From assembly GCF_025698545.1 (NCBI RefSeq), contig NC_068566.1, positions 43,751,192-43,815,191 of the forward strand: a stretch of DNA of 64,000 nt, in the 5' to 3' direction. Source of the DNA: Gossypium raimondii (lineage: Eukaryota; Streptophyta; Magnoliopsida; Malvales; Malvaceae). The notes under the pieces were generated by a model. It worked only from the letters and a program-made list of their open reading frames with translations. It was not told where the DNA came from and did not search any database. The position numbers and the translations under genes are program-made. Below, piece after piece: positions 25,844-60,573 of this stretch (within the stretch, counting starts at the first letter, position 1; each line of letters opens with the position of its first letter).

Positions 25844-25848
25844 CCGGG

Positions 25849-27742: not shown

Positions 27743-27782
27743 ATCTGAATGGGCTGATATTTGAACTAGCTCTAATACTACT

Positions 27783-36986: not shown

Positions 36987-38941
36987 ATGGGGTCATTGGA
37001 TTCAAAAGAATCACCAGCCAATAACCCAGGCCTTCATTCTCCCCCTGATGAAGCCACCAAAGGCTACATCATGCAGCAAACCGTAAGTTCCTGTTTTGGG
37101 CGTTTACAACATGTACATTGCTATGGCTTTTAAGGGAATTTATGTAATGTTTTCATTTTTCTTTTGAATTTTACAGATGTTTCGAATCAAGGACCCAAAA
37201 CCTACCCTTGAATTTTATAGTCGCGTTTTGGGCATGTCGTAAGTTATATTATTCTTTTTTTTTTCTTAATTTTGACCCTTTTGCATTATAAAGTTAAATA
37301 AATATCTTTTGAAGTTCAAGTAACTTTTTAAATATAAGCAATGGCGTAGTTAGGGGATTGGCAGGCTTCGGCCTATTTAAAATAGAAAATTTTTCATTTA
37401 GTCTTTTTAATTTTTTTAAAAATTTTAAATTAGTGAAATTAAAATTGTACTTTAGCCTCTTAAAAATAATAAAATGTGATTTAGTCCTTTAAAAATTATA
37501 AAGATATAGTCTATTCAAATGGCAAAATTGTATTTTTATTATCGTAAAAATTAAAATTTAATTTCGATCACCCTAAAAAATTTTTCCTTCACCCCTGAAT
37601 ATAAGAAAAGTATTTTTGAAAAATTAAAATTTTTATTTTTAAAAGTTACTTTTGAGTTAAATTACCTATTTTTTTCTTATTTATATCTTCCTATAAACAC
37701 TTTTATTATGGAATCTATTTTCAAAATTGATTATTTCTAAAATCAAACACTTGTATTTGATTTGATTGTTAATGGAATCCATGACAACATCATTTTCAGG
37801 TTGCTAAACAAAGTGGATGTTCCATATATGAAAATGACATTGTATATGATGGGCTATGAGGTAAAATTGATATAGTTGTATTGCAAGAAATTGTCTTGTT
37901 ATTTGTCTCATTTCATTGTGCTATCATCTTTCGCTTATTGGTTTTAGGTGCCACCATTTTGGAAAAAAATTAATTATGTTTGATTCTAAATGCAATGTAG
38001 GATGTTTCATCAGCTCCAAGTGACCCAGTTGAGAAAACTATTTGGACATTTGGAAGACCAGCTACTATGGAATTAACACAGTAAGAATACATTTTTTTAA
38101 GAAAAAAGAAAAGAAAAATAATTGAACCCCATTTTGTTTTGACAAAGGTTTTGTTCTTCTGATTAAACTAGTAGAAAATCAATCAAACTTTAAAAAAAAA
38201 TTATATTGTAATGATTGAACCGGTCAAATTAAAATTTTATGGTCTAACCGATTTGATCACTAATCCGATTCTTATCATATTGATTTAACAATTTGATGTT
38301 TCCTACAGTTTCTGGGGTACTGAAAACGACCCTGAGTTCAAAGGATACCACGATGGGAATTCAGAACCTACTGGCTTCGGTATGCATAATTTTTGTCACT
38401 TTTGTAATGTTTGTTTCTTCCCACTGTTTGGTTTGCAAATTAGAGATGGAGACAATTTGATGGCATATACCATTCATTTGTTGTGCCTTATTGAACTCCA
38501 ATGGTGATAGTGGCAGGGGATCATATTATTGGTATTAATAGCTATCCTTAAAATATATGGGAAAACTTTAGAAAAAGTTGAGTATAATCATGCCACATAC
38601 TTGTATGTAATATTTACCCTCAACTCTGGTAACGTTTTCCCCTTCAGGGCACATTGGCATCACCGTGGATGACATGTATAAGGCATGTGAGAGATTTGAG
38701 AGTCTTGGAGTAGAGTTTGTCAAAAAACCAGGCGATGGTAAGTCATTTCATCTATATTAGCAACCAAAGTTAATGTCTGAAATATTTTCTTTCGGATTTT
38801 TGTTTTTAAAAAATGTATTAATTCATGCCTTATTTGCCAATTTGATTTCTAGGTTATGCATTCATCAAGGATCCCGATGGTTACTGGATTGAAATCTTTG
38901 ATTTGAATGGAATTAGAGCAATAGTTAACAATTTAGCTTAA
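36987..38941 (+). CDS. SPG: Glyoxalase I-family protein A, SPG-like (glutathione site degraded)
   Basis: Seven exons, all GT-AG: 36987-37082, 37177-37238, 37800-37860, 38001-38080, 38309-38379, 38648-38737, 38853-38941, giving 182 residues. It is one complete glyoxalase fold. The metal ligands of the family are present: Q31 (QQT), E97 (TMELTH), H125 (GFGHIG), E167 (WIEIFD). Of the glutathione contacts known in human GLO1, the Arg is kept (R35), but Asn is F101 (THFWGTE), Arg is T121 (SEPTGFG), and the KMKG loop is missing (DG joins Y155-AFI). There is no N-terminal targeting extension. Classical glyoxalase I isomerises the methylglyoxal-glutathione hemithioacetal. This protein fits cotton SPG, reported to have lost glutathione binding and to aromatise a sesquiterpene in gossypol synthesis. 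The fold call is firm and the SPG role is inferred. Intron 2 carries a MITE. Confidence 0.9.
37339..37597. mobile_element. hAT-like MITE in intron 2 of gene A, TSD AATATAAG
   Basis: Flanked by a perfect 8-base repeat AATATAAG (37331-37338 and 37598-37605). The right end reads inward CAGGGGTGAAGG, a hAT-type terminus, and the left end CAATGGCGTAG is a decayed match. Genes B and C lack it, so their intron 2 is about 250 bases instead of 561. Confidence 0.75.
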
Positions 38942-38963
38942 GCTAGTGCTTCACCAAGTTCAG

Positions 38964-39039
38964 GTAGTTTTGTTTTTATTGCTTATCAATCTTTGTACAT
39001 CATTGCAAATTAATCTAATACATGTCGGTGTCTATGCAG
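38964..39039 (+). other. Intron in the 3' UTR of gene A
   Basis: Donor 'ttcag|gtag' lies 22 bases after the stop codon and acceptor 'tatgcag|gaaac' ends at 39039. B (54397-54473) and C (60596-60672) have the same intron at the same distance. Confidence 0.65.
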
Positions 39040-39589
39040 GAAACAAGGATATGGCATATGTAGTAGGTTTCGTTCGTTGTCATGATTCTAGTGTTATAAT
39101 GTCTGCTCTCGTACATTAATTCCTTTGCTTTCTAGAACTTATCGAGAGACAAAATTCGGTGAAATCTTAATTGAAGCACATTTCATTTCTATTGTGTACG
39201 TTTTTTGTATGTTTAATATGTATAACAAGCACGAAAAAGTGGAAAAATAAAATAAAAATTGTAAGAGAAAACTTAATCTTCAGTTTTACTAAAATTCAAC
39301 TTAAGTTATTTAAGATTTTATGTCTATGTATCATGCATGTGCTTACCAAGTCAATGCATGAACTAGAAAAACTGAGTGATGAAAATGCAAAAACTTTCTT
39401 TGAAGTTACACACATGATACCATTCATCCTTTTACAATCCCCAACAGCATATATCATTTTGGGGATTAGCAAGAATTAACCTCTTTTTTTTAGGAATCTG
39501 TTAACACTATAGTACTATTATCAGTTAGCAGTTGAAACTTTTTTTTTTTTTGGTAGTAAATAAAAATACATGCCTAAAATTAGGAATGT

Positions 39590-40260
39590 ATAGGATAAAG
39601 GTCACCTCATGCAGTGAGCGACGAACATCCTTCACTAACAGACTTCTTACATATTGTGGTGGATCTGTGAGAATAACTAATTGATTTAACTGCTCTACTA
39701 TTGTCTTGGCCTAGCATTCAACCACCATGTTACTCTCTCTCAATATATGTCTAAACTTCACTTGCCAATCTTTAGTGCACCATTCATGAATTACTCAGAC
39801 TTCTGCAATGTTACTAATTGATGCAAATCCATTTTGAATAGTATAAATTAACATTGCATTATCACAATCAACCTCTACCTATTTGAAGCCCTTTGACCAA
39901 ACCAACTTTAAGCCTTCAACAATTGCTCGTGCTTCAATCTGGAAAACATCGAACACCCCTGTTACCATTCCGCAATCGACCTACCAAACTCCACTTGAAC
40001 ATCTCACTACTCCCCCTATTGCCGCTTTGGTGTTGCTCATTGATACCGATCCATTGATGTTAATCTTGATCCATCTAGGTGGATGCTGCCACCCTTGTTC
40101 TGTTTTAGAAAAACAGGCCAATTGTTTCATATTAATTACCACTAAATCCAAAAGACTTTGCGCAAGCAAGAGCCGAAGCAATGAGTTCATGGCTACTTCT
40201 ACTAGCATTATTAAAGATGAAATCATTAAGACTCTTCCAAAGAAACTAAGTAACAATTGA
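39590..40260 (-). mobile_element. LINE RNase H-domain fragment
   Basis: Minus strand near 40090-39980 reads GWQHPPRWIKININGSVSMS and AAIGGVVRCSSG, the start of a plant LINE RNase H domain. Pieces such as EARAIVEGLKLVWSKGFK and an HEW-C-W-VKF stretch follow down to about 39700. It is inserted downstream of gene A and is broken by stops. Confidence 0.65.
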
Positions 40261-40739
40261 GAAAAAAAAGTTGGCCATTCGCCCCTGCCAATTGTTAGAT
40301 TCCCCTCATTCGTGATATTCTAGTGTACCCAACACCCAACATGTAAGTTGACACTATTTAACACTTTAATAATAGCAATTAATAATAATGTTATTTATTT
40401 CAACTTCGACCTACTAATAATATTATAAAAACAAATTATTAAATTATATAAAATTAAAATAGAGAATTAAATTTTAAATTTCAAATAGTTAGAGGGATTA
40501 AAGCTTCATTATTCAAATCAAATCTAAAACTTTGTTCAGATTTGAAATTTTTTAACTTGCATGGAGCGGTAGTTAAAGCTTTTATCAGACATAGATTCAA
40601 AACGTGCGACTCCATTCCCATCGCCAATATTGTATCAAAAAATTCGTCACAAAAACTTTCAAGAAACATCAAATTTTAACTCCCTCTCTCTAGCTCCCAA
40701 ACCAACGTGAACAGAAAAGTTGAAGAGAAAATGATGAGG

Positions 40740-42201
40740 TCATGTTTTAATGAATTAAAATCAAAAGAAAAGAATTAGAAATCACCTTACCTAATTGGAA
40801 TCAAAAGTTTAATCAAGAAAAATCTTAACAACACAAGTTCCTCCTCTTCACACCAACAACGGTTGGTTCTAAAGCAAATGGAAAATTTTGCCAATACCAA
40901 TCATTTTATTACATTCCATATTATGCATGTACCAATTCAATTTCATTTTTTGTATCTCGTACAAGCATGCATATAACCTTATTGACATATCAATCATATT
41001 CTATCCTTTATTACATTCACTCGGGCATCTTTAGCACATATAATCATTTCTTTACAATTTAGTCCATAACTCACCTTTTTTACCAAATCGCAAACCATTC
41101 AAATTACAACCAAACATACACATATTCATAATTCAAATACATAAAAATTTAAATAAAATCATATCATATGACTTACTTGGTCAAAATAGCAAACAACCGA
41201 ATCTTCAAGGACTAATAGCAATTTTGCATATTCCCCGATTATCTTCAGTTTGGTTCAATTCCTGATTTATACAATAATTAGGTTCCATTTATCAATACCA
41301 ATCATTTTATAACATTCCCTATTATGCATATACCAATTCAATTTCATTTTTACATGCTCTAAAATTTTTCATTTTATTCAATTTAGTCTCTAAAATCAAA
41401 ATTGTCATAACTTTCAATTTTGAGCTACGATTTAAAAATCAATCTCAATCACGTCCTTCTATGACCCTCTATTATCTAATATTAAAGAAATTTGACATCA
41501 ATTTCAAAATTTATACACTTTGGTCCTTTTGAACAAAACTAACAATTAAACTTTATAATCTAGTCCTTTTTACTTCTAAGCTTAAAATCTATCAATTTAA
41601 CACCAATTTTTTAAGACTTCATCAATGGAAACTTTCAAAAACTTTAACAGTTTTACAAATTGGTACAGGGACTAGCTAAATTAAGCTTCCATAACCTCAA
41701 AAATAAAAAATACAAGAAAAAGACTAGATTGAACTCACCAATAAAGGACCGAAAGTTTGAAGACCTGGCTTGGTTATATCCTTTTTTTTTATTTTCAAAT
41801 TCGGTGAAGAAGAAGAAATATGGATGACAACATCCACTCTCTTCACTTTTTTTATACTTAAATTATATGTTAATGATCATAATTAATTTAATTAAACTAA
41901 ATTAATTAATCTAAATCAAAATTAATCAACTTATTAGATTTTAACAATCCTCCACCACAATTTGACCATTTAACAATGTTCTAATTGCTCATTTGGTCCT
42001 TTGATTAATTAAAAATCTATAGTGATAAAATTTTACAACTTTTACAATCTAGTCCTTATACCTTAATTAACTATCAATTTGACAAAATTAAGGGACCAAA
42101 CTTTAATAAAATTTAATTCTAACCTTGTAAATATTATCAAAAAATGAAAATGGGGTTCCGAAACTGCTGTTTTCGACACCTTTGAAAATCAGGCTATTAT
42201 A
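40740..42201. mobile_element. Truncated LTR of the TGTAACA family
   Basis: The right end 'ggttccgaaactgctgtttt' then 'aaaatcaggctattata' matches the right end of the solo LTR at 13760-13804. The preceding text has the same 'ttggtcc..tt' spacer style. The left end is not found. Confidence 0.4.
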
Positions 42202-42816
42202 GATCACTTAGTGAAAGTTGTGATAGTGAAATTAGCAAACATGGTGAAATTAATAGTGAGGAATGTTCATAAGAGTCTATAAATTTAGAACTTGAAACAT
42301 CATCTCCTCCAAATAATTTTATTATGATGAATTAAATGTTAAAAATATTGTGAGGGGGATATGAGAAGTGAGGATGATCCATATAAAAAGATTGAGAGAA
42401 AAGAGACTTTGAATAATAAAAGTAATTTGATGGTTGAACTTTGGTGAGTAAAAATTCATGAGATAGAATTCAAGAGTTGTCCTCAAGATGAAAAAAAAAA
42501 AAGAAGAATGAAAAGAAAAAGATACCTATGTTGGATCTAGTACCTTTATAGTAGTATTTCCGTCTATGTATACTTGTATTTTTGAAAAATTGGTTTAATA
42601 AAACATCCATTGATTAAATTAATATTCTTTGTATATTTTCCTCAACAGGTTTTTACATGCAAAGCAAATATCGACTCATTGATTATCTAACGTTTAACTA
42701 ATACTAAGCGGTATTACGTGATCATATTGTAATACGAACAGACAACTTATATTATTAGATAATCTAAACATGCCTTCGTTTAATTAAAAATGAGCAAACC
42801 AATTGAAAGACTAATA
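42202..42816. other. Non-coding stretch, no gene recognised
   Basis: AT-rich. Nothing supported. Confidence 0.3.
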
Positions 42817-43448
42817 TGTTGGTTTAAATTATAAAGTGTTGTGTCAAAAGTTCGGGAAGCATTTATAATTGGACCTAATACATGAGAGACCCAATTTGTC
42901 CCTCATGTAATATGAAGGGACAACAACTCTAGTCAAATTATGAGGGTGTGTCACCCCCTCTTTCTCAGTTAGACTGGGAGTATGTTTTCTATTTAAAATA
43001 ATATTATTTATCAAAGGCTTGTTCAATCAAGATTCTTGTACTTTCCTCTATAAATAGAGAGCACCAATTGACCTAAAATGATACTTCATACATTATTCAC
43101 ATATTGTTATTCTGTCAGAAATTAGTGGTAATTTATTTACTTAGAATAAATTCTATACGATATTTTTCGGTTTTTATAGAGAGAACTTACTTTCCTATTG
43201 AAAGTAAGTAAATCGTTTTCTTTTCTATGTTTTGGTTCGTATTGCTCGAGCCCAAACTCAATGCAATTCATTATACGAGAATAGTGGAGAAGATGGTTTG
43301 GTTGAAAGCATCCGTCTCGCACAAAGTACAGGTCCTATTCTGGTTTAGGGTTTATTACTATAAATATCACAAAATTGCTCGGTTTTGAAAATTTTTAAAA
43401 CAACCGCTATAGCTGTAAAAACTATTTTCTTAACTAATTTTTCCAACA
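42817..43448. mobile_element. Possible solo LTR, TGTTGG...CCAACA
   Basis: 632 bases with perfect 6-base inverted termini and an internal 'ctctataaatagagag' that would be a good LTR TATA box (about 43050). The flanks TAATA and ACCTA do not form a target duplication, so it could be a recombinant or a chance match. Confidence 0.4.
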
Positions 43449-45374
43449 ACCTATAGAAAAGAGAGAAAAGATTATGTTTTCATTAACCTTAACTTAAATT
43501 TGTCAAGTAGACTTGTTTCTTTATTTTAGGATTTCGTGGATTCATTTAGAGGAGCTCAATTAAACTATTCCACTTTTCATAAAGATTCTTTCCTGTTCTA
43601 CCATGGATAAGATTCAAGGATGAATCTTTTCGAGGAAGGGGAAATGATACATGCATGAACGGAGTGAAATTTATTAAATTCAATTCACCAAAGTAGCCAA
43701 TTTTCAAGTTTGGAAAACCAGCTAACTTGTGACATGGGTCCTAGCATTTCTAGGTCGGGATGTCTTCTAATCGGTGAAAGATTAATCTCTTATCTTCGAA
43801 ATGCACTTTAAATCGTCTGATTTTGAGTTTGGTATCTCAAATTATGGTCATTTTAGTGAAGACAGTGTGTATAGAAAATTTTGGGCGAGATTATTGCGGA
43901 AATTACGAGTTTTGGACTTGGATTAGATTTTACATCAATTTAGGTTCAATTTTGAGGCTTAATTTTGATTATATATAAGCCCAATATTGCATTATGCTTT
44001 TTGTATTTATTGATTCCTAATTTTAGGATATTATTTAAGTGTTTTAACTTCTTTAGAAGTTTTTTTTTATAATCTTTTTTTGGTTGGCAAGAAGGTTTAG
44101 TTCAACTAGAATCACCTCTCACTTAGCCAAACTAGAAGTTTAATTAAGTTATGAGTTTGTTTTCATTCAATGAACTTACATTATTCATTATATTATAAGA
44201 TTTTGATTATTTAATTAATAAAAACACTTTTTGGAGTATTTTATTTTGCAAGATTCTATTCTTATTTTTATTCGGAAGATTCTTTTTACTTAATATTGTT
44301 CAAGATTTGGAGACAAATTCTTCAAACTCCGGATTACCAAAAATTCATTTTTGGAGGGTCAATTAGAGTTATTGATTGAGTTTGTCGAGAAATATTTCTC
44401 GGAGAATTCAATCAAACACTTATCCTTATATTCATCTTCATTAACTTATCTATTCCATCTTTCACCTTTTTTATCTTATTTAATTTTTAGTTTTTTTGTT
44501 ATCTTTACTAGTTAAATTCGTTTAATTCACATTGCTTGCAATTTTTTGTTCTTAAATTTCAAGAACTCTTGTTCAAGTCGGTTTTCTTAAAACCAAGTCA
44601 CTAATCATTCGAGCTTAATTCCATCCTCTTATTCTTTCTTCCATATTCCATTTTTGCTATCAAATTCTCATCTTTCTTTGCTTTTTTTTCCAGGTTCGAA
44701 ACTTTCCTTTGCTTGCGGCCCTTTTTTTTTTTCAACATTATCAAATAATTCTTTTCTTCCTAAATTTAAAATAATTCACCTTAAATATTCTTTTAAATCT
44801 TAATCCTTCAAATAGTGAGAAAAAATCATACAAAACATAAAATTCAAATTTTTTTTCTTTTTCATGAACGGGGTTCAGATTTCTTAAAGTTTCTCAATCT
44901 TTAATAATCAAATTTGTATTTCTACTTGTTTATTTTGAGAATAAATAAATTTAGGTTTTTCTTTAAACCTCTCCTTTATTTTCATTCTCCATCTCTCCTT
45001 CGTAATGAAAGTTAAAATATATTGTAAGTCTCTATTTTTTTGTATATTTGAAATTTAGTCTATCTATTTTTATTTTCAGAAATTTAGTGTTTCTACTATT
45101 CATATAAAATTCATTGGTGTGACACTTAAGTATAAAATTCACTTAATAGTCATATTACAAAAATTGATGTGGTAATGAATCAATCTAAGGGAAGAATTTT
45201 AATAATGTTAATAGTTAAACTTGCATTTTTAAACCCTAAAAGTAAAGGGACTATATTTCTTAAAATAAAAGCAGATGTACTAAATTCCAAATGTACTAAT
45301 TGAAATGTATTTTAACCTATAAATAAACCAATAATAATGACTTTTTAAATGTTTTTTTAAAGAATTTCGATATT
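43449..45374. other. Non-coding stretch, probably old repeat
   Basis: AT-rich, pyrimidine-rich around 44450-45000. No protein frame or element end is identified. Confidence 0.3.
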
Positions 45375-45382
45375 GTTATACT

Positions 45383-48300
45383 TAGATCTGTCCATGGGTC
45401 AGATTACACGCCTAGGTCCGAAGGCCCGCCTAAATTTTGGGAGGGTTTGGGTAAAAATATTAGGCCTGGAAAACAAGTTTGGGCAAAAAAATTATGTAAC
45501 AACCCTGTTTAGACTCTAGTCGGAACAGTGGTTTTGAGACCACAAATTCGAGTCTGAAAAATATCTTAATATTATTTTCTGAGTCTACAGCATGTGAATT
45601 GGTATGTGTGAAATTTTCATGATTTCATTTGATCATTTGTGTGCTTAATTTGCAAAAAGGATTAAATCGCAAAAAATGCAAAATTATACTTCTATTTGAA
45701 TAATGGCCGATTTGATGTGTCTTTAAAAAGAGGAGATCCTTATGTGGTTATTTAACCATTGAATGCATTAAATGGCAAAGCTGGACATTACTTAGTGGGT
45801 TTTAAATGATATTATAAAGGTTAAAAATGGAAATTGATAATTAAATAATGAAATAATAAAACAAAAGTATGAAAATAGGCCATTATGTTCATCTTTGGCC
45901 GATAATAACAAGAAAAGAAAAGAAAAAAGACTAAGCTAGGGTTCGGCTTTGATATTTGGTGATTAAGGTATGTGTTTTGATCTATTTATGATAATTTCTA
46001 TGTTTTTGTGATTGTTGCTTAGCATTTTATTAAGCACATGCCTCAATTTCTGATTTTGATGAAGATTGTGAGTTAAGTCATTGATGAATTTGTGAGTTTA
46101 ATGATGTTAATTGAAATTTTATGAAAGATAGGTGTTGGATTAATATGTTTTGTATTGAGATTTTTGATGAATTTGAGTATTTTGGGTTAAATCGTGAAAA
46201 TGAGAAATTGAGGGGCTAAAATGTGAAATAAATGAAATGTGTGGGGTTATATGAGTTAAAGGAATATTTAACCAAGCTAGGATATTGTTAAATTATGTGT
46301 ATTTTGTGATTTTATGAAATAGGGATTAAAATGTCAAAATGTGAAAATGTGAGGGCTAATTTGTAAAATACCCTAAATATGTGTATATGGATTGAATTGA
46401 ATGGTTTGGTGAATGAATAAGCTAAATTTGTATTGAATTAGATTAAGAAAAGAAGAATTCGGATTTGGATTAGGGGAAATCAAAAGTAGACAATAGCCGT
46501 TCCGGTCCGTTCGTCTCCGTACAAGGTAAGTTCATAAGTAAATAATTATTGTTAATTTATATGAAAATTTATTTAATTGTGCTGAATTGAATTTTAGTAA
46601 TTATATATGAGCTTGTTGAATTGACATAAGTGTGGGAAAAGTAGATACAAGCTTGAATCGATCGAATTACGACGTTCGAAAGCCCCGTACGAACCATAGG
46701 AATAGTTAGGATATATATGTCATGACATAGGATTCCGATATGTGATTTCTTGTAAGACAATGTTTGGGACGTTGGCATCAAATTGAGATTTACGTGTAAG
46801 ACCCTGTCTGGGACAGTAGCATCGATATTTGATTACAAGTAAGACCTCGTCTAGGACGTAGGCATTGTACGAGCTTTTCGAGTTATCCGAGTATCCTTAT
46901 TGATTCTGAATGGTTCAACAGGCAGTGTTAAGTTGAGATCGAGTGTGAATCGAGTTAAATGACTCAGGTACGTGCGAAATTAAATGTTCATGAAAATAGG
47001 TAAGTATAATACTTGAGATGATGATATGAATTATACATGTTAAAGGTGTGACTATTATGTGCATGAGTTTGTTCATGTTCGGCCATATTGATATAATTAT
47101 GCTAATGTTCATTTGATAATTTATTTACTTATAACTTACTAGGCAATTTAAGCTTACTGTGTGTGTGTTTGTTCGTCGTTTTATAGATTTTTGGAAAGTT
47201 AGTTACAAGCCCAGGGATCGTCAAGGAAGTCTGTCACACTATTGACCTCTATTTCGGTATTTTAAAAGCTTGAAACTTTGAACAAATGGCATGTATAGGC
47301 TAGCATTTGTTTTGTTTAGTCTTGAAATGAGTATATATTTAGCCAGGCGAAAATAGCTTAATTTTGATATTAATGTTATGTGTATTCGGTCATGGCAATA
47401 GCTCATTATAGAAGTATATTTCTTGGTGTATATATATGTGGTATGTGATTATATGGTTTGGTTTGATTAATAAGTTAGTTGATGGTTGTGTAATTTTGGT
47501 CATGGTTTACACACATTTTGGTAAGTATGTTCCAAAACAAGTATGAACGGTGTTTTGGTTATATGTCTTGGTTGACTAATGATATGAATGATTTATAAAT
47601 AGCTCATTTAGTAAGCTTGATACATGATTTGATTTGCAATGGTGGTTGGTCTTGTGTTTCGGCTCAGTGAAGAGGTAAATTGATGAAATTATGTTCGATT
47701 GCGTAAGGGTTATTTAAATCGGTCTGTAATGGTTAAGCATGCACATATTATATGCTTGAATGAGTGAGTTTTTAGGTACGGTTCAAGATGAAAATGGCAT
47801 GAATTATTTTTGGAGGTTAAAGGTGATGACCGAAAATTGGATTAATGGATTTGGTTGTGTATATGAAATTTTGGCATGGTACATAGCATATGAAATTGGC
47901 ATGTTTAATATTGATTATTGAACTTAGAAAATGGTTAAGTATAGTCAAGTGGGCAATGTATGAAATGGTTAGTTTTACAATTAAAATTTGGTCATTTAGA
48001 AATTGCTTGCATGTACTTGTATAATTTTGCCCATTTTGCCGTGTGATATAGTTCAGCTTAAATTAATATGTACATGTATAAAGATCGTAAATACTTTATA
48101 TTGATTTTAGTTAATGTTATGAATTGATATGGTTAGTTGTGGTTTAAATATGCAAGTGGGTAAGTTAATATAATGAATGTATTGTTGTAAGTTGAGTATA
48201 TGAAACCGACATATGATTGATGATTATTTAGGTGTCCAAATGCCTTACTATATAGCCACAAGTTTCGCTAATGGAATTAATGTATATATATTACGATATG

Positions 48301-49084: not shown

Positions 49085-49387
49085 GTTATACTGATTTATT
49101 TTGGAAATGTGAATTTTATAAGTTAGAATAAGGTTAGAGGTTCTTTTCCCTGATAATGAAATAATGTTAGAGTTAGAAGATTAGAAACACAATGAATTAA
49201 GGGATTTAATTATTAAATTTTGTTTGATTAGTAAGAAATAAGAAAGAGATTATATAAAAAGAATTGATTCCGTGTAAAGGGGAAAAGATTTTTTTTTTTT
49301 TTTTTTTGTAGTTACTTGAAGTTTGTCTCATTATTTTAAATATTAAGATTTAAAAAAAAATTAAGGTGGGTTAAAATTTAAGCTATG

Positions 49388-49990: not shown

Positions 49991-50285
49991 TAGTAAATTA
50001 AAGAAGGATAAGTCAGAAAACGACTGCAATAAAAAAATAAAATAAAAGTAGTTGTGGGGATAATTTATATATATAATAAGGGTTGATTAAGAACTTATAA
50101 ATTATCAAGAGCATTTTTATATATAAAAATAAATATTATTTTAAGCGTAATATTTTTTATAACTTTTTGAATTTAGGAACAAATATATATTCTATTCATC
50201 ATTTTAATTTCAACTAAAATAAAATATAATTAAAAAACTAATGAATAATTTGTGACTATCAAAAAGATCAAAGATGAATAGTTTA

Positions 50286-50362
50286 GAACCCCGTGTGATG
50301 GCCTGGTGTGGTATGAGTTCGAGCCGCACTAGTCTATTTCTTGTTCGGGCATTAAAAAAATA
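50286..50362 (+). mobile_element. Short SINE-like (tRNA-derived) insertion, TSD AATAGTTTA
   Basis: 77 bases between perfect 9-base repeats AATAGTTTA (50277-50285 and 50363-50371). It contains 'gagttcgagccgc', a good Pol III B-box, after a 'tggcctggtgtggta' stretch, and ends in an A-rich tail. This is the layout of a 5'-truncated tRNA-derived SINE. Confidence 0.55.
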
Positions 50363-50399
50363 AATAGTTTAATGTATTTAATTGGAGTAGGAGAGTAAT

Positions 50400-51450: not shown

Positions 51451-51539
51451 AACATTTTAACATAAAAAATATTCATAATCAAAGAAATACCATTATAATA
51501 GAATTTTTTAAATATTAAAAATTAAACTTATATTTTGTT

Positions 51540-52300
51540 TTGAAATGTAAATCCATTAATTCATTCAATGAATGGAACCGTACAATTTAGAGAAGAAAAA
51601 AAGTAAACACTTGTCGTAGATGGTGAAAGACGAGCTCCATCAATACAACAAAGGCTTTAGCCTCAGCATTAATAGAACATTATGACACGTTGACAATTGA
51701 CATATTCAGAGTGATTGCAAGCACTTAATACGATAAGGAAATCAGCCCCGGATGGTCCAAAGCAGCGAGCAAAAATCGACAAAAGAATTTAGCATTCACC
51801 AAACTAGAGAGGACGACAACAAAATCATTCCTAAAATCACTTGTAAAACTAAGATTACATGTATAAGCAAGACTAAAAAATGTACTACAAGAGCAAACAA
51901 AAGCTTCTAAAACTGAAGACTCATTAAATAATGGAAAAACAAACAAAAAAGTAAAAAACTTAAGACAACACAGGTCCAAATCGACGCATGAAATCATTTA
52001 TTATTTTGAAATACTCTCAAAACATAAACAAATTAATTAAGAAGTTAACGAAGAGTCATCCACTTTTCCAAAAAAAATTATTGGTGGCCGGTGGAGTTTT
52101 AGCGAATAACAAACACCACCATCTGTCCATCACAACTTGTGAAGACAACAAAGATACCTACAAAATAAATCTGCAAACTGAAAAGAAAGAAGACGTGTAA
52201 TGAATGAGAAGAATAAAGAAAGAAAATATTAATGGAAGAAGAAAAAGGCAAGCGATAACCAGCCTGAAAGCTGACACCGCCGCTGAACAAAACAAAATTG
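51540..52300. other. Unassigned sequence upstream of gene B
   Basis: Less AT-rich than its surroundings and absent from the region upstream of C, so probably an insertion. 'cattaatgctgaggctaaag' on the minus strand could be an RNase H remnant, but I cannot support it further. Confidence 0.3.
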
Positions 52301-52482
52301 AACTTACATTTTTAAATCTAGAAAGTAAAGAGATTAAATTATTAAAAAAACTAAATTTCAAATATATGAAAAAAATTTAACTAATCAACCATAAAACATT
52401 ATTACCATTCAACCATATTTTTTATAATATTAACAATAATTTACAACAATGTCATCAAACTTTTTGTTTTAGGCAACGGCGG

Positions 52483-52490
<8 letters not shown>

Positions 52491-52513
<23 letters not shown>

Positions 52514-52515
52514 TC
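52491..52515. repeat. (CT)n microsatellite in the gene B promoter
   Basis: About 12 CT units, roughly 50 bases upstream of the TATA box. Confidence 0.9.
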
Positions 52516-52563
52516 GGCATCACCTTTTTCACACTCATTTTTTTTCCACATCTTCAAAGCCTC

Positions 52564-52570
52564 TATATAA
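52564..52570 (+). promoter_or_regulatory. TATA box of glyoxalase gene B
   Basis: TATATAA, 99 bases before the start codon, in context shared with A and C. Confidence 0.75.
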
Positions 52571-52669
52571 GCATAAGCAATCCTTCACTTTTAACACAAC
52601 TCCACTGACTTTCCCTCATTTCACTCTTAAACTCTAAACCCCAACTCTCCAGATTACATATTGCAAACA

Positions 52670-54374
52670 ATGGCGTCATTGGATTCAAAAGAATCACCTG
52701 CCAATAACCCAGGCCTTCATTTTCCCCCTGATGAAGCCACCAAAGGCTACATCATGCAGCAAACCGTAAGTTCCTGTTTTGGATGTTTACAATATGTACA
52801 TTGCTATGCCTTTCAAGGGAATTTATGTAATGTTTTTTTTTTTTTTTTTTTTGGGTTTTGCAGATGTTTCGTATTAAGGATCCAAAGCGCACTCTTGAAT
52901 TTTATAGTCGTGTTTTAGGCATGAAGTAAGTTATATTTCTCTTCTTTTCTTAATTTAAGCTGTTTTGTATTATAAAGTTAAATAAATATCTTTTGAAGTC
53001 AAAATAAAAAGTATTTTTGAGTTAAATTATCTATTATTTTCTTATTTATCTCTTCTAAACTTGTTTATAAACACTTTTATTATAGAATCTATTTTCAAAA
53101 TTGATTATTTCTAAAATCAAACACTTATATTTGATTTGATTGTTAATGGAATCTATGAATACATCCTTTTCAGGTTGCTTAACAAAGTGGATGTTCCATA
53201 TATGAAAATGACATTGTATATGATGGGATATGAGGTAAAACTGATTTAATTATATTGCAAGAAATTGTATTCTTATTGGTCTCATTTCCTTGTGCTATCA
53301 TCTTTCGCTTATTGGTTTTGGGTGCCACCATTTGGGTAAATTTAATTATGTTTGATTCTAAAAGCATGTGTTCCCTTGGATGTAGGATGTTTCATCAGCA
53401 CCAAGTGACCCAGTTGAGAAAACTATTTGGACATTTGGAAGACCAGCTACTATGGAACTAACACAGTAAGAATACATTATTTTTAGAAAATGAAAAATTA
53501 ACCCACCTTTTGATTTAGCAAAGTTATCATTTTCCTGTACGGGATTGTTAGATTCGAATCGGTTCGATCGATTACATCGATAAAATATTGATTGACCGTG
53601 TAAAAGAGTTGTTGAAAGATCATTTTAAATTGAATTTAAGCTAGTTTAAATATTTAATTTTTTGGGTTTTGTTTTTTTTATCTTGAACTAATTAAATCAG
53701 CAACCAATTTTTACAACACTGATTTAATAGTTTAACGTTTGCTACAGCTTTTGGGGTACCGAAAACGATCCTGAATTCAAAGGATACCACGATGGGAATT
53801 CAGAACCTATTGGCTTTGGTATGCATAGTTTTTGCCTCTTTTGCGACGTTATTCTTCCAAGTGTTTACATTTATAAATTAGAAGCTGAGACATTTTGATG
53901 GCATATACAATTCGTTTGTTTTGCCTTATTGAACTCCAATAGGAGAAAATAATTATAATATATGTATTAATTGCCGTCCTTAAAATATATGAGAAAACTT
54001 TAGATAAAAAAAAAAACCAGTATTACCATGCCACATACATGGTTGTATCTGATATTCACCTTCGAATGTATTCCTTTCCAGGGCACATTGGCATCACTGT
54101 GGATGACATGTACAAGGCCTGCGAGAGATTTGAAAGTCTTGGAGTAGAATTTGTCAAAAAACCAAGCGATGGTAAATCATCTCATCTATATTAGTAACCA
54201 AAGTTATGTCTGAAATATTTCCTTTTGGATTTTTGTTTTTTAAAATTGCATCAATTCATGCCTCGTTTGCCAATCTGATTTATAGGTTTTGCATTCATCA
54301 AGGACCCTGATGGTTATTGGATTGAAATCTTTGATTTGAAAGGAATTAGACAAATAGTTAACAGTTTAGCTTGA
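52670..54374 (+). CDS. SPG: Glyoxalase I-family protein B, SPG-like (glutathione site degraded)
   Basis: Exons 52670-52765, 52864-52925, 53174-53234, 53386-53465, 53748-53818, 54082-54171, 54286-54374, all GT-AG, 182 residues. Metal ligands Q31, E97, H125 and E167 are kept. Glutathione positions are F101 and I121, and the loop KMKG is absent (DG-F155-AFI). R35 is kept. Relative to A it has A2, F18, R41, K53, I121, S152, F155 and a different C-terminus ([10 protein letters not shown]), so A is an outgroup to B and C. The 22-base-distant 3' UTR intron (54397-54473) is conserved. Expected location is the cytosol, as no targeting peptide is visible. Function as for A: probably a glutathione-independent isomerase/aromatase rather than a methylglyoxal detoxifier. 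Confidence 0.92.
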
Positions 54375-54479
54375 GTTAATGCTTCACCAAATTCAGGTAA
54401 CTTTTTATTGCTCATCATTTTTGTACATCATTGTAAATCGATCTGATACATTTCGGTGTTGATGTCGATGCAGGAAACA

Positions 54480-55754
54480 ATGATATGGCATATGTTGTAG
54501 ATTCCAATGTCTACTCCCATACATTAATTCCTTTGCTTTCCGAAACTTGTCGAGGGACAAACTCAAGTGAAATCTTAATTGAAGCACATTTCATTCTAGT
54601 TGTGTTCATGTTTTCTTCACGTTTGATATGTATAACAAATAATGTGAAAATAAAGAATTTTGTAAGAGAAATTTCAACCTTCAAATTTACTAAATTCTAT
54701 TTAAATTACATATAAATTTGTATGCCAATATATCATGTATACAAAGTCATGAATGAAGTAGAAAAATAAGTGATGAAAATGCAAAAACTTCCAATGGTTG
54801 AATCATTGAATGGGGCAAAGCAAAAGTATTTTCTTTGAAATGATACTCTTGAATAAAAATACGAGACGTTACACATTTTTATTGGATGTCGGTATTTTTG
54901 GAGTAAAATAAAACAAAATGATACTTCATGTATCAAAATGAGAAAAAAGTTCAAATACCAAAGTGAGAAAATAATATAATTCAAGAATTAAATTATGACT
55001 TAAGCCTTAATTAGTAAGGTGGAGAAACTTGAGCACTTTTATGAATTTGTTAACAATATTAGTACTATCATCTATCAACGGTCAATACTATTAACACTTT
55101 AAAAGTTGCCATTAAAAGCGTTATCAATTTAGACCTACTAATAACATTATAAAAAGTAAATAATCAAATTATATCAAATTAAAGTAAAGAATTAAATTTC
55201 AAATTTTAAATAGTTAAGCGGACTAAAACTGGAATTAGACCATAAAACAAAACATATGAAAACTTCACAATAGAAATTGCTCTACTCTTTGCCCTCACCT
55301 ACGCCCCATGCGAAGGGATTGTATGAAACTGTCATCCCTATCACTTCCCAATAGGAGAATGACAAATTAAATTGTTCCTCTTAATTTTTGGCCTACAATT
55401 GACAAAATGGAATTATCAAAAACAACTCTTCAAAAGCCATTTTTGTTAGATAACCACTCATCAAACTGAAAACTCATAGGTTAGATTAGGATATCAGTCT
55501 CGAATTTGAGATTTAATTTTATATTTTAATTAGTTTGTATATCCGCAATATACAAATTGATAGTGTATATTATTTAAAAATTAAATTAATTAAAAATTTT
55601 AACGTATAATATTATTATTTAAAATTCATATAGTAGAGTATGGTGTGACTATCAACGATGAATGGTTAATCTGCTTAATGCATTTATTAATTTTTAATTC
55701 AAGTCAGTAATTCAATGAAATAAAATAAAAATCCCTAAAACATCACCATTGAAA
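54480..55754. other. Downstream flank of gene B, part of the tandem unit
   Basis: No gene. The segment 54900-55230 ('attatgacttaagccttaatt', 'aaacttgagcactttt', 'actattaacactt') is repeated downstream of C at 62230-62470, and traces occur beyond A near 39480-39530 and 40340-40440. Confidence 0.55.
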
Positions 55755-55759
55755 CATTC

Positions 55760-56187
55760 TGTTAAGTATGACTCCTATTTTCAGTCAAATTTGAGAAATA
55801 ATCTTTTAGTTAAACTCTGTTTATTTGTTTCAGTCAAACACGATTAATTTAGATTATTTTATTATTATTTGACATGTGAATTTAGCCTATAAATAGGCTC
55901 TTTCACAACCTTAGTAAAAACACCCATTAGAGATTAGAACTCATAACACATTTAGAGAATTTTTGTGTTTACGTTTTGAGAGTTCTTTGTTTTCGGGTTT
56001 TCGGGGTTTAGTTTTTATCTCCATCTTTTGTACTCTTCGTTTTTTTTGCCATTATAGTAAAATTATCTTTACCCGTGGTTTTTTATCCTCTTTGGAGGGG
56101 TTTTCCATGTTAAATTTGTGTGTTCAATTTCTCAATTTATTCCGCTATTTTTGTTACTTGTTGCTTTAATCGGGACGATCCCTAACA
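55760..56187 (+). repeat. 5' LTR of gag-only element copy 2
   Basis: Contains 'gcctataaataggctc', a likely LTR TATA box at about 55888. Confidence 0.87.
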
Positions 56188-56234
56188 AGTGGTATCAGAG
56201 CTAGTTCAAATTTCATAGATCAGCCCGTTCAGAG

Positions 56235-57653
56235 ATGGCAGCAACAAGGTTTGAAATTGAGAAGTTCAATGGTGAGACAAATTTCAATTTGTGGCAAGTT
56301 CGGATGATGGCAATCCTAGTTCAAAACGGCTTGAAAAAGGTTGTTACAGGGAAAAAGCCTGAGAATCTAAATCAAATAGAATGGGAAGAGCTTGATGAAA
56401 AGTCCTTGTCTGCAATCCAGTTGTGCCTCGCGAATACGGTATTGCAGGAGGTCTTGATGGAGAAGACCTCATCCGCCTTGTGGCAAAGGTTAGAAACTCT
56501 TTATGCGACTAAGTCTTTGGCTAACCGTTTAGTGTTGAAACAACGTCTATTTACGTTTCGCTTGAACGAATGTGAGCTTCTTAGAGATCACATCAGTTAA
56601 TTCATTACTCTTTTAAATTATTTAAAGAACGTTGAGGTTCATATTGATGATGAAGATCAAGCTATTCTATTATTGTGCTCTTTACCCCCTTCATACAAGT
56701 CTTTCAGGGAGACCCTGAAATATGGCAGAGATAAAATCTCGTTTGAAGATGTGAAGGGTCATTTGTTGAGCAGAGACAAACTCGACAATAAGCTTCATTT
56801 GGATAGCAAGGCAGATAGGCAAGCTTCCGTTTTGGAAGCATCAAAGAAACGAGACAAAAGGTGTCGCTATTGTAAAAAGTTAGGTCACGTCAAAGCAGAT
56901 TGTTATAAACTGCAAAATAAAAGAGCTGCTGAGAGTAACGAGGAAGATGTAGCTGGTACTAATTTGATCGATGAAAGCGGTGATGATTTCTTGTTAGTGT
57001 CAACGAGCGATAACTCCAAGCTCATGTTCGAGTGGATCCTAGATTCGGGATGTTCTTTCCACATGTGTCCCAATAGAGAATGGTTCTCCACATACAGTTC
57101 GGTTGAAGGTGGAGTTGTGCGCATGGGAAATGATTCATCTAGTAAGGTAATTGGTATTGGTACTGTTAAAATTAGGATACACGATGGGACGATTAGGACA
57201 CTCTCAGATGTCAGGTATGTACCTGATTTACGAAAGAATCTCATCTCCTTAAGTATTTTAGACTTGAAAGGATGAAGAATCAACATCGAGTCAAACGGCA
57301 TTAAAGTATCTCATGGAGCTCTCATTTTGTTAAAAGGTAAAAGAACTGGCAGTCTTTATATTCTGGAAGGTTCTACAGTGACCGGTGAAATCGGACGTCC
57401 CTCGTCCATTACAGAGTCGAAGTCAACTTATTTGGAGCAGAGGCAACTTGGTCATAGGAGGGAAAAATGTATAACCGTTTCGTTGAAGAGAGGTTCTCTT
57501 TTGGGTGCAGGTTTTGAAAAGTTAGGGCACTGTGTTCGTGAAAATCAGACCCGGATTAGTTTTGATTTGGCAGTGTACAAGTCGAAGGCTAGAAGTCTTC
57601 CAGTTTCTAAGCACAGATTCGACTCAGTTGATTCCCTGCATAGTTCAAGATAG
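56235..57653 (+). pseudogene. Gag-protease of the short LTR element, copy 2, two stops
   Basis: Starts MAATRFEIEKFNGETNFNLW. A TAA at about 56598 follows DHIS (copy 1 has Gln). The frame goes on through LCSLPPSYKSFRETL, a CCHC knuckle (CRYCKKLGHVKADC), the protease motif ILDSGCSFHMC and VRYVPDLRKNLISLS, to a TGA at 57272 where copy 1 has Cys. It resumes with TGSLYILEG and RRQLGHRREK and ends SLHSSR. One frame carries nearly all of it, so only two point changes break it. Confidence 0.88.
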
Positions 57654-57711
57654 GCTCGTGGCGAGCTTTGGCAAAAATGGCGTTGTGGAAATATGAGTCA
57701 AGGTGGAGATT

Positions 57712-58145
57712 TGTTAAGTATGACTCCTATTTTCAGTCAAATTTGAAAAATAATCTTTTAGTTAAACTCTGTTTATTTGTTGCAGTCAAACACTGATTAG
57801 TTTAGATTATTTTATTATTATTTGACATGTGAATTTTAGCCTATAAATAGGCTCTTTCACAACCTTAGTAAAAACACCCATTAGAGATTAGAACTCATAA
57901 CACATTTAGAGAATTTTTATGTTTACGTTTTGAGAGTTATTTGTTTTCGGGTTTTCGGGGTTTAGTTTTTATCTCCATCTTTTGTACTCTTCGTTTTTTT
58001 TTTTGCCATTATAGTAAAATTATCTTTGCCCGTGATTTTTTATCCTCTTTGGAGGGGTTTTTTCACGTTAAATTTGTGTGTTCAATTTCTCAATTTATTC
58101 CGCTATTTTTGTTACTTGTTGCTTTAATCGGGACGATCCCTAACA
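57712..58145 (+). repeat. 3' LTR of gag-only element copy 2
   Basis: Near-identical to the 5' LTR, with small length differences in T runs. Confidence 0.87.
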
Positions 58146-58670
58146 CATCCAAAGAACAAGAACGACGAAACTAAGTATTTTTTTAAAAACAAAAGTAGGA
58201 CATCTTTATTGAAGTAAGGCAACGACGTTTTATATTAAAAACAAAAAGATAACTAAATAAAATATAATTTCTAAAACTTGAAAGAAAACATCAAAGGAAA
58301 AAACATAACTTCCAACCACATTTGAACTTTCCTAATCTAAAATTCAGAATACTAACATGAAAAGCTCCCAAACAAGTTAGTTTATAAAATATGAGAAAAT
58401 GAGAGCAAGCCATAGTTGACTGTTTTCTTTTTAATTTAATTCAAAGTTGGAGGCTGGCAGAAAACTACAACAATTTCATTAAATAAATATTATTTTATAA
58501 ACATATCTTTACGTCAATAAGTTCAATCTTTCTCCTTTATTAGTTTAGAATTTTAAATCTGTTTAATAAAACTATATTCTAATATTCAAACATTCAAAGT
58601 TAGCTATTTTTATAGCGTTATAAAATTTACAAAAATGTAATCAAACCTTTTGTTTTAGTCAACAGCAGCT
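58146..58670. other. Upstream region of gene C
   Basis: No gene. From about 58400 it matches sequence upstream of B at 50425-50530. Confidence 0.4.
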
Positions 58671-58676
58671 AGTTGC

Positions 58677-58678
<2 letters not shown>

Positions 58679-58720
<42 letters not shown>
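58679..58720. repeat. (CT)n microsatellite in the gene C promoter
   Basis: 21 CT units ending 17 bases before the TATA box. The equivalent tract is about 12 units in B and absent in A. Confidence 0.92.
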
Positions 58721-58723
<3 letters not shown>

Positions 58724-58737
58724 AACAGCAAAGCCTC

Positions 58738-58744
58738 TATATAA
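58738..58744 (+). promoter_or_regulatory. TATA box of glyoxalase gene C
   Basis: TATATAA, 99 bases before the start codon. Confidence 0.75.
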
Positions 58745-58843
58745 GCATAAGCACTCCTTCACTTTCAACACAACTTCACTAACTTTCCCTTATTTCACTC
58801 TTAAACTCTAAACCCCAACTCTCCAGATTTCATATTGCAAACG

Positions 58844-60573
58844 ATGGCGTCATTGGATTCAAAAGAATCACCTGCCAATAACCCAGGCCTTCATTTTCCC
58901 CCTGACGAAGCCACCAAAGGCTACATCATGCAGCAAACCGTAAGTTCCTGTTTTGGGTGTTTACAATACGTACATTGCTATGGCTTTCAAGGGAATTTAT
59001 GTAATGTTTTTCTTTTCTTTTGGGTTTTGCAGATGTTTCGTATTAAGGATCCAAAACGAACTCTTGAATTCTATAGTCGTGTTTTGGGCATGACGTAAGT
59101 TATATTTATCTTCTTTTCTTAATTTAAGCCGTTTTGCATTATAAAGTTAAACAAATATCTTTTGAAGTCAAAGTGAAAAGTATTTTTAAGTTAAACTATC
59201 TATTTTTCTTATTTATCTCTTCTAAACTTGTTTATAAACACTTTTATTATAGAATTTATTTTCGAAATTGATTATTTCTAAAATCAAACACTTGTATTTA
59301 ATTTGATTGTTAATGGAATCTATGAATACATCCTTTTTCAGGTTGCTTAACAAAGTGGATGTTCCATATATGAAAATGACATTGTATATGATGGGATATG
59401 AGGTAAAACTCATTTAATTGTATTGCAACAAATTGTCTCCTTATTGGTCTCATTTCATCGTGCTATCATCTTTCACTTATTGGTTTTGGGTAAATTTAAT
59501 TATGTTTGATTCTAAATGCATGTGTTTCCTTGGATGTAGGATGTTTCATCAGCTCCAACTGACCCAGTTGAGAAAACTATTTGGACATTTGGAAGACCAG
59601 CAACTATGGAACTGACACAGTAAGAATACATTATTTAGAAAATGAAAATTTAAACCACCTTTTGGTTCGATAAAGTTATCATTCTTCTGTCTTATGGCTT
59701 CTTTAGCACATGGTTATCAAAATCGAATGAGATCGGTCGATTACACCGATAAAATATTGATCGAATCGAGTAAAAAAAACTATTAAAAGATTATTTTAAA
59801 TTGAATTTGATCTGGTTTAAATGTTTAACTTTTTGCTTTATGGTTTGATGCTATTTTGTAATTGATCTTTCTCTTTTTCTACTAAAAAAATTTTAAAAGT
59901 TTTTTTTTTATCTTGTAATCGCTGAACCAATTAAATCAGGAACCAATGATTTAGTTGATTTGATCATATGTCCGGTTTTTACAATATTGATTTAATAGTT
60001 TAATGTTTCCTACAGCTTTTGGGGTACCGAAAACGATCCCGAGTTCAAAGGATATCACGATGGGAATTCGGAACCTATTGGATTTGGTATGCATAGTTTT
60101 TGCCTCTTTTATGATGTTATTCTTCCAAGTGTTTACGTTTATAAATTAGAAGTTGAAACATTTTGATGGCATATACCATTCTTTTGTTTTGCCTTATTGA
60201 ACTCCAATAGTGATTGTGATAGGGGAAAATAATCATAACACATGTATTAATAGCCGTATCTGATATTCATCTTCAAATGTATTCCTTTTTCAGGGCACAT
60301 CGGCCTTACCGTGGATGACTTGTACAAGGCATGCGAGAGATTTGAAAGTCTTGGAGTGGAATTTGTCAAAAAACCAAGTGACGGTAAGTCATCTCATCTA
60401 TATTAGCAATGAAATATTTCCTTTCGGGATTTTTGTTTTTAAAAATGCATCAATTCATGCCTTATTTGCCAATCTGATATATAGGTTTTGCATTCATCAA
60501 GGATCCTGATGGTTATTGGATTGAAATCTTTGATTTGAAAGGAATTAGACAAATAGTTAACAGTTTAGCTTGA
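58844..60573 (+). CDS. SPG: Glyoxalase I-family protein C, SPG-like (glutathione site degraded)
   Basis: Exons 58844-58939, 59033-59094, 59342-59402, 59540-59619, 60016-60086, 60294-60383, 60485-60573, all GT-AG, 182 residues. It differs from B at only four residues by eye: T53 for K, T80 for S, L128 for I, L133 for M. It has the same retained metal ligands (Q31, E97, H125, E167) and the same altered glutathione positions (F101, I121, KMKG loop absent, F155). L128 sits three residues after the metal His, so it may touch the active site. The 3' UTR intron is at 60596-60672. B and C are clearly the youngest pair in the array. Confidence 0.92.

What the first reader, a model, noticed from the sequence alone, without database searches (positions are those of the whole stretch)
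36987..60573. Three tandem glyoxalase I genes keep the metal site but have lost the glutathione site: a likely SPG locus
Seen: A, B and C all retain the four metal ligands (Q31, E97, H125, E167). At the positions that contact glutathione in human GLO1 they have Phe for Asn (F101), Thr or Ile for Arg (121), and lack the Lys-Met of the flexible loop. Only the first Arg (R35) remains. Known: cotton SPG is a specialised glyoxalase I that lost its glutathione-binding sites and its targeting signal and aromatises a cyclic sesquiterpene hydroxyketone in the gossypol pathway. Inference: A-C are SPG or SPG-like genes. The array then shows a detoxification enzyme turned into a biosynthetic one by local duplication, with three intact copies that may differ in substrate or tissue.
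Basis: partly seen in the sequence, partly recalled or inferred. Interest (0 to 1): 0.9.

Follow-up and report, generated by a model that had tools for sequence, protein, structure and literature searches.

The report
Cotton gossypol aromatase gene array
Cotton carries a row of three intact copies and one dead copy of the already known enzyme SPG, a detoxification enzyme remade into a maker of the defence compound gossypol, and the DNA here still shows traces of how its targeting signal and probably its glutathione loop were lost.

Summary
A, B and C are intact seven-exon genes at the stated coordinates. Their best solved relative is the crystallised cotton SPG (7VQ6); A matches it at 173 of 181 residues. 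SPG in cotton is published, and neighbouring SPG gene numbers in upland cotton are in print, so identity and tandem copies are not new.

What I add, not found in the papers I could search:
(1) The array derives from the canonical glyoxalase I gene on another contig (C13), inside a collinear block (ABCF-like, 4CL-like, GLXI), and was then multiplied locally.
(2) A fourth copy, D, starts at 63435 and runs out of the window. It is a pseudogene that still shows the end of the transit-peptide exon.
(3) Through D, the TATA region and leader of A-C align with that exon and its intron.
(4) The lost Gly-Lys-Met-Lys loop lies flush at a splice junction. I favour an acceptor that slid 12 bases over a DNA deletion; shuffle tests alone do not settle it.
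(5) A-C are old copies under strong purifying selection.
(6) Hibiscus, Durio and Craigia hold relatives with related losses, so the change may predate gossypol.

The parts
36987..38941 (+). Gene A, SPG; exons 36987-37082, 37177-37238, 37800-37860, 38001-38080, 38309-38379, 38648-38737, 38853-38941
   Evidence: 173 of 181 residues as in 7VQ6
52670..54374 (+). Gene B, SPG; exons 52670-52765, 52864-52925, 53174-53234, 53386-53465, 53748-53818, 54082-54171, 54286-54374
   Evidence: 181 of 182 as in G. barbadense D03 protein P0001, 171 of 181 as in 7VQ6
58844..60573 (+). Gene C, SPG; exons 58844-58939, 59033-59094, 59342-59402, 59540-59619, 60016-60086, 60294-60383, 60485-60573
   Evidence: 168 of 181 as in 7VQ6, 177 of 182 as in P0001
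63435..64000 (+). Gene D, fourth GLXI-like copy, pseudogene, cut by the window end (continues to about window position 65047 in L008): broken splice donor after exon 2, exon 4 truncated, exon 7 acceptor and frame damaged, stop near the end; Asn at 101, Leu at 121
63258..63434 (+). D leader: remains of the transit-peptide exon end, its intron and the short second exon
   Evidence: 82.9% over 70 nt to the canonical gene, E 1e-14; local score 92 against a maximum of 32 in 1000 shuffles
36816..36986 (+). A core promoter and leader, collinear with the transit-peptide exon end and intron of the canonical gene; TATATAA at 36887
   Evidence: A-D local score 51, 0 of 1000 shuffles reach it; A to canonical gene directly 25, 54 of 1000 reach it
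52518..52669 (+). B core promoter and leader, same origin; TATATAA at 52564
   Evidence: B-D 71.9% over 121 nt, E 3e-9, local score 70, 0 of 1000 shuffles
58702..58843 (+). C core promoter and leader, same origin; TATATAA at 58738 (a further TATAAAA lies at 58619)
   Evidence: C-D local score 46, 1 of 1000 shuffles reaches it, match begins in a CT repeat
38841..38852 (+). End of intron 6 of A, inferred remains of the Gly-Lys-Met-Lys codons (B: 54274-54285, C: 60473-60484)
   Evidence: alignment with canonical gene; inference
2992..4020 (-). AMP-binding (4CL-like, label recalled) exon, copy 1; second copy 9793-10800; left-hand marker of the collinear block
   Evidence: 82.6% over 345 residues to the gene head-to-head with canonical GLXI on C13; PF00501
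55760..58145 (+). Short LTR element between B and C (copia type by recall, no family search run); LTRs 419 of 428 identical, so inserted after the B-C duplication (inferred)

Best explanation
A, B and C are SPG genes of a D-genome cotton (most likely Gossypium raimondii, inferred): cytosolic, metal-dependent glyoxalase-fold enzymes that no longer hold glutathione and aromatise a cyclic sesquiterpene alpha-hydroxyketone in the gossypol pathway. Shown here: gene structure, metal site, loss of glutathione contacts, absence of a transit peptide, block duplication of the canonical GLXI gene, purifying selection, and a dead fourth copy. Inferred: (a) the duplicate lost the start of its transit-peptide exon, and what was left of that exon and its intron became the TATA region and leader; (b) the glutathione loop went when the acceptor of intron 6 moved 12 bases downstream to an AG already present in the exon, so the Gly-Lys-Met-Lys codons became intron; (c) the change at 121 came with or before the loop loss, and Phe101 and the Met65/Met69 pocket came last. 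Catalysis itself is taken from the literature.
For: SPG identity. Sites. Searched with the canonical protein, the genome gives one canonical GLXI gene (C13:58552342-58554475), the four C2 copies and only weak hits on C6 and C8 (best candidates only; a Pfam search also shows other, distant glyoxalase-family loci on C6, C8, C10 and C12). Same order and strand in two blocks: ABCF-like(-), 4CL-like(-), GLXI(+) on C13 and C2; dS 0.88-0.92 for 4CL-like and 0.69-0.78 for SPG against GLXI. Transit exon to leader. Loop: the missing residues are the first 12 bases of exon 7; the exonic AG ends exactly 12 bases in, and 5 bases plus GCATTC follow in A-C as in the canonical gene; in the alignment the old acceptor AG is gone in A, B, C and D; the span from the intron motif to GCATTC, counted by hand on sequences printed, is 30 bases in the canonical gene and 31 in all four (the motif is altered in D). 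dN/dS 0.09 (A-B), 0.08 (A-C), 0.04 (B-C) with dS 0.22-0.39. Papers (passages): SPG function in PMC12362738; SPG hub genes with neighbouring numbers and five glyoxalase I family genes in a gossypol module in PMC10298013; glyoxalase I as the most connected gene of a gland module in PMC7004908.
Against: No enzyme, expression or transcript data were produced here. Shuffle tests of the acceptor slide are weak: 26, 238, 344 and 1000 of 1000 shuffles do as well for A, B, C and D, and the best alignments of B and D in that call do not place the old acceptor as one search does. A's leader matches the canonical gene directly only weakly (54 of 1000); the link runs through D, and the B and C matches to the canonical gene lean on CT repeats. 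The right-hand neighbours of canonical GLXI have no close paralog near the array: exostosin's is on C5, MYB's are on C8 and C5. The protein tree does not recover SPG, D, Hibiscus, Durio and Craigia as one clade, though it does not reject it (p-AU 0.39). [quoted passage not shown]
Confidence: 0.9

Rival explanations
1. A-C are ordinary or stress-type glyoxalase I genes that keep glutathione-dependent methylglyoxal activity and merely diverged at these positions.
For: Metal site, R35 and the two lysines kept. PMC12566506 (passages) states that the ancestral role is preserved in SPG.
Against: Best match is SPG itself. Among 151 listed homologs plus A-C only A-C, the SPG cluster, Durio, Craigia and two Hibiscus syriacus proteins (one of them lacking the stretch with position 101) combine loss at 101, loss at 121 and a shorter loop. 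PMC12362738 (passages) reports, citing earlier work, that deleting the loop abolishes GLO1 activity.
Confidence: 0.04
2. The glutathione loop was lost by a 12-base in-frame deletion at the start of exon 7, not by an acceptor slide.
For: Same protein result; shuffle tests do not exclude it.
Against: It needs one breakpoint exactly at the splice junction plus a gain of about 18 bases at the end of the intron; the slide needs loss of the old AG and a gain of about 5-6 bases (hand count).
Confidence: 0.3
3. The array arose purely by local or dispersed single-gene duplication, and the C13/C2 neighbours are coincidence.
For: Right-hand neighbours are not shared between C13 and C2.
Against: Two further genes, ABCF-like and 4CL-like, keep order and strand, and the 4CL-like pair has a similar dS.
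Confidence: 0.1
4. B and C have moved on to a different sesquiterpene or mycotoxin-like substrate, and only A is the gossypol SPG.
For: A and B/C differ at pocket sites 121, 152 and 155. The A residues match all 11 pocket positions listed for OR9 in PMC12362738, B and C 9 of 11; the paper gives OR9 higher deoxynivalenol activity than Gr-SPG (OR9's full sequence not seen).
Against: The changes are few; 7VQ6, an A-type protein, also has Ile121 and Ser152.
Confidence: 0.2

Closest known systems
SPG, specialised glyoxalase I of cotton (PDB 7VQ6; Gr-SPG, Gh-SPG; PMC12362738, PMC12566506)
   Same: A, B, C are 92.8-95.6% identical to 7VQ6, with the same metal ligands, the same loss at 101 and of the loop, Arg121 lost, no transit peptide
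   Different: Three intact copies and one dead copy in one array; A has Thr121 and Gly152; origin features described here were not found in the papers searched
Canonical plant glyoxalase I (EC 4.4.1.5), here C13:58552342-58554475
   Same: Fold family, metal site, exon plan; sister of the array by block duplication
   Different: Keeps Asn101, Arg121, the Gly-Lys-Met-Lys loop and a 41-residue first exon read as targeting signal
Hibiscus 'Glyoxalase I;3' type proteins (P0013, P0121, P0122), Durio P0006, Craigia P0034
   Same: Listed proteins of 169-185 residues without a transit peptide (P0121 is an 'isoform X2', so longer forms may exist), Arg121 lost, loop shortened (4 residues in Hibiscus, 1 in Durio and Craigia), Phe or Tyr at 155, which is also Phe in one canonical Malvaceae protein, Diplodiscus
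   Different: Lack the SPG pocket changes Met65, Met69, Tyr62, Asn56; Hibiscus trionum keeps Asn101; function unknown

Membership tests
SPG (specialised glyoxalase I) | Glyoxalase family with Q/E/H/E metal ligands | tested here: met
SPG (specialised glyoxalase I) | Loss of glutathione-binding residues and of the GKMK loop | tested here: met
   R35 and K149/K150 remain
SPG (specialised glyoxalase I) | No organelle-targeting signal | tested here: met
   start codon corresponds to the second Met of the canonical gene; no ATG in the 180 bases upstream of A, B, C; transcripts not seen
SPG (specialised glyoxalase I) | Near identity to the crystallised cotton protein | tested here: met
   A 173, B 171, C 168 of 181 to 7VQ6; B 181 of 182 to the D03 protein P0001
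SPG (specialised glyoxalase I) | Aromatase activity on the pathway hydroxyketone without glutathione | not testable with these tools
   needs enzyme assay; taken from literature for relatives
SPG (specialised glyoxalase I) | Co-expression with gossypol genes in glands | not tested
   literature on other cottons only, passages: PMC10298013, PMC7004908 for; PMC10169749 against
Canonical glyoxalase I | Asn101, Arg121 and Lys-Met loop contacting glutathione | tested here: not met
Canonical glyoxalase I | Glutathione-dependent isomerisation of methylglyoxal adduct | not testable with these tools
   needs enzyme assay

The most novel reading that the evidence does not exclude
The switch from detoxification to biosynthesis was made largely by gene-structure accidents after a block duplication: a truncated transit-peptide exon was recycled into the new TATA promoter and leader, and an in-frame slide of one splice acceptor turned the glutathione-loop codons into intron. 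This happened in a Malvaceae lineage older than gossypol itself, whose living members in Hibiscus, Durio and Craigia and dead copy D mark the intermediate steps.
Probability: 0.5. Interest if true: 0.65.

Novelty: already known. Interest (0 to 1): 0.45.

Why it matters
SPG is a model for how a housekeeping detoxification enzyme becomes a biosynthetic one. The cotton genome still holds the canonical sister gene, the recruited copies and a dead copy with older features, so the order of the steps can be read and tested. If the splice slide and the recycled exon hold, the key functional losses were single cheap events rather than gradual erosion. The relatives in Hibiscus, Durio and Craigia are ready candidates for similar chemistry outside gossypol.

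Tried and rejected
Direct match of A's leader to the canonical transit exon: weak (54 of 1000 shuffles reach it), kept only through D. Alignment test for the acceptor slide: not decisive. Protein tree (30 rows: A-C, D, the canonical protein and 25 of the 142 homologs listed by then, the columns of sites 101, 121 and 152-156 left out) to prove one Malvaceae clade: unresolved; D has a long branch. Right-hand synteny of C13 and C2: not found. The original SPG paper (Nature Chemical Biology, recalled; looked up by a recalled DOI) is not held, so what it says of gene structure is unknown to me. A structure prediction was not run because 7VQ6 is 93-96% identical. The dS script stopped with an error at its third comparison (the two window copies of the 4CL-like exon) after printing the two used here. 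In one search the printed joined N-terminus of the canonical protein is out of frame by my coordinate slip; the frame was read instead. One search's last line (D) is also out of frame; D was read. The labels ABCF, 4CL and copia are recalled; Pfam gave AMP-binding, Myb and exostosin domains, and the ABCF-like exon was not run against Pfam. One search listed 20 of 103,102 papers, none holding 'specialized glyoxalase', so it adds little.
Full report
Check of the observation. Splicing by hand gives A 36987-38941, B 52670-54374 and C 58844-60573, each seven exons and 182 residues, all introns GT-AG, no internal stops. Protein identity as counted there, stop included, is 94.5% (A-B), 92.9% (A-C) and 97.8% (B-C). 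The four metal ligands and R35 are kept in A-C and in the 142 homologs aligned with them (145 of 145 rows). Asn101 is Phe, Arg121 is Thr (A) or Ile (B, C), and the Gly-Lys-Met-Lys loop is missing. The homologs are the best 120 listed of each of three searches with 3182, 7971 and 3571 hits, 151 distinct in the end. Among these plus A-C, the combination of no Asn101, no Arg/Lys121 and a shortened loop occurs in 8 of 154 rows: A, B, C, the Gossypium cluster P0001, Durio P0006, Craigia P0034 and Hibiscus syriacus P0121 and P0122; P0122 counts because it lacks the stretch that holds position 101.

What it is. A search of the PDB puts 7VQ6 first for A and for C, at 3.1e-121 and 5.5e-119, with the next glyoxalase I chains at 1.0e-65 and 5e-65. 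7VQ6 is called the SPG structure of Gossypium hirsutum in PMC12362738 (passages) and PMC12566506 (passages). A shares 173 of 181 residues with it, B 171 and C 168; B shares 181 of 182 with a G. barbadense D03 protein. The genome (750.8 Mb, 281 contigs, window on contig C2) and these matches point to a D-genome cotton, most likely G. raimondii (inference). Tandem SPG genes are in print at least implicitly: PMC10298013 (passages) lists GH_A03G0398, GH_A03G0399 and GH_D03G1574 as SPG hub genes and five glyoxalase I family genes in its candidate module; PMC11321651 (passages) names Gh_A03G0248 and Gh_D03G1322 as SPG. PMC7004908 (passages) names glyoxalase I as the most connected gene of a gland module. 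PMC10169749 (passages) points the other way, with two SPG genes, one of them on A05, higher in a glandless line.

A fourth copy. Exons of a fourth gene, D, start at 63435 and run past the window end to about position 65047 (L008). It is dead: broken splice sites, a truncated exon 4, a stop near the end. It has Asn at 101, Leu at 121 and Tyr at 155. Searched with the canonical protein, the genome gives one canonical GLXI gene on C13, these four copies on C2, and weak hits on C6 and C8 (best candidates only). A search with the Pfam model also finds distant glyoxalase-family loci on C6, C8, C10 and C12. No further copy was seen in about 49 kb downstream and 10 kb upstream of the window.

Where it came from. 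The canonical gene lies head-to-head with a 4CL-like gene, with an ABCF-like gene to the left. The window holds two copies of that 4CL-like gene on the same strand left of the array, and two ABCF-like copies lie further left on C2. Order and strand agree. Synonymous divergence is 0.88-0.92 for the 4CL-like pairs and 0.69-0.78 for SPG against GLXI. So the array is a block duplicate, as after polyploidy, that was then multiplied in place. The genes to the right of canonical GLXI do not help: exostosin has its best paralog on C5, MYB has near-equal ones on C8 and C5, and none was found near the array on C2 (150 of 228 MYB candidates were scored).

How the targeting signal went. The canonical gene has a 41-codon first exon, an intron, and a short second exon part that leads to the internal Met from which SPG starts. 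D keeps the end of the first exon, the intron and the second exon: 82.9% over 70 bases, E 1e-14, local score 92 against a maximum of 32 in 1000 shuffles. The leaders of A, B and C match D (0, 0 and 1 of 1000 shuffles reach the score) at the collinear place. Each has a TATATAA, 100, 106 and 106 bases before the start codon; D has none in 250 bases, and C has one more TATA-like site at -225. In the alignment the shared TATA falls on the last codons of the old transit exon. The first 19 or so codons with their ATG were not recognised in any of the four. Against the canonical gene directly, A is weak (54 of 1000), B (0 of 1000) and C (8 of 1000) lean on CT repeats. I infer that the copy lost the front of its first exon and that the rest became promoter and leader.

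How the loop went. In the canonical gene the loop codons are the first 12 bases of exon 7, and they end in an AG followed by GG. In A-C exon 7 starts exactly after the matching place. In the alignment the old acceptor AG is gone in A, B, C and D. The distance from the intron motif before the old acceptor to the conserved GCATTC of exon 7, counted by hand, is 30 bases in the canonical gene and 31 in all four copies (sequences; the motif is altered in D). This fits a slide of the acceptor to the in-frame AG, with the loop codons now intron. A scored comparison with shuffled introns does not prove it: 26, 238, 344 and 1000 of 1000 shuffles do as well for A, B, C and D. I put the slide at about 0.7.

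Order of changes. Hibiscus proteins P0013, P0121 and P0122 lack the same four loop residues and have Leu121, while P0013 keeps Asn101; Durio and Craigia have changed 101 and 121 and a loop shorter by one. D shares Leu121 with Hibiscus and Craigia. The SPG pocket residues Met65, Met69, Tyr62 and Asn56 are seen only in A-C and P0001 among the 145 rows. The tree puts these rows in a group of 16 that holds Malvaceae only (family membership recalled; support 92/86; Corchorus, also Malvaceae, falls outside) but does not settle one clade (not recovered, not rejected, p-AU 0.39). A stepwise path, Arg121 and loop before Phe101 and the pocket, is the simplest reading.

Are the copies different? dS between copies is 0.22-0.39, with dN/dS 0.04-0.09. 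They are old and kept, not recent spares. A differs from B and C at 121, 152 and 155, positions that PMC12362738 (passages) treats as lining the active site or tested there. A agrees with all 11 residues listed there for the enzyme OR9, B and C with 9. The paper reports OR9 as more active on deoxynivalenol than Gr-SPG. I did not see OR9's sequence, so that A is the OR9 type is inference. The low dN/dS within the array does not speak for ongoing positive selection, which PMC12566506 (passages) suggests for SPG; their comparison is between species and mine between copies.

Novelty. The enzyme and its role are known. Searches for the loop name with glyoxalase, for gossypol with SPG, for the gene numbers and for splice, transit peptide and tandem terms (listings, with passages read in six papers) showed no account of the block origin, the dead fourth copy, the recycled exon or the acceptor slide; the original SPG paper is not held, so it may contain some of this.

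Noticed in passing
695-4329 and 7498-11105: The 4CL-like gene region is duplicated in direct orientation at 98.4% over 3.6 kb, a recent local duplication next to the SPG array.
   Followed up: partly
25848-28208 and 55760-58146: Two copies of a short LTR element (copia type by recall) in opposite orientation, 92.5% alike; short interrupted frames. Observed only.
   Followed up: partly
20445-24961: Retroelement polyprotein frames (copia type by recall) with an internal direct duplication (22476-23109 and 23115-23751, 97%).
   Followed up: no
P0151 (Ulmus minor) and P0138 (Kalanchoe fedtschenkoi): Glyoxalase I relatives outside Malvaceae with other losses at the glutathione site (Ulmus Asp101, Val121, altered loop; Kalanchoe Leu121, altered loop), possible independent cases of the same switch.
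   Followed up: no
G000 C13:58550444-58552342: Canonical GLXI and the 4CL-like gene are head-to-head about 720 bases apart and may share a promoter; on C2 about 26 kb separates the nearest 4CL-like copy from A.
   Followed up: no
G000 C5:8143725-8155375: MYB and exostosin neighbours of canonical GLXI both have close paralogs within 12 kb of each other on C5, a further paralogous block.
   Followed up: no
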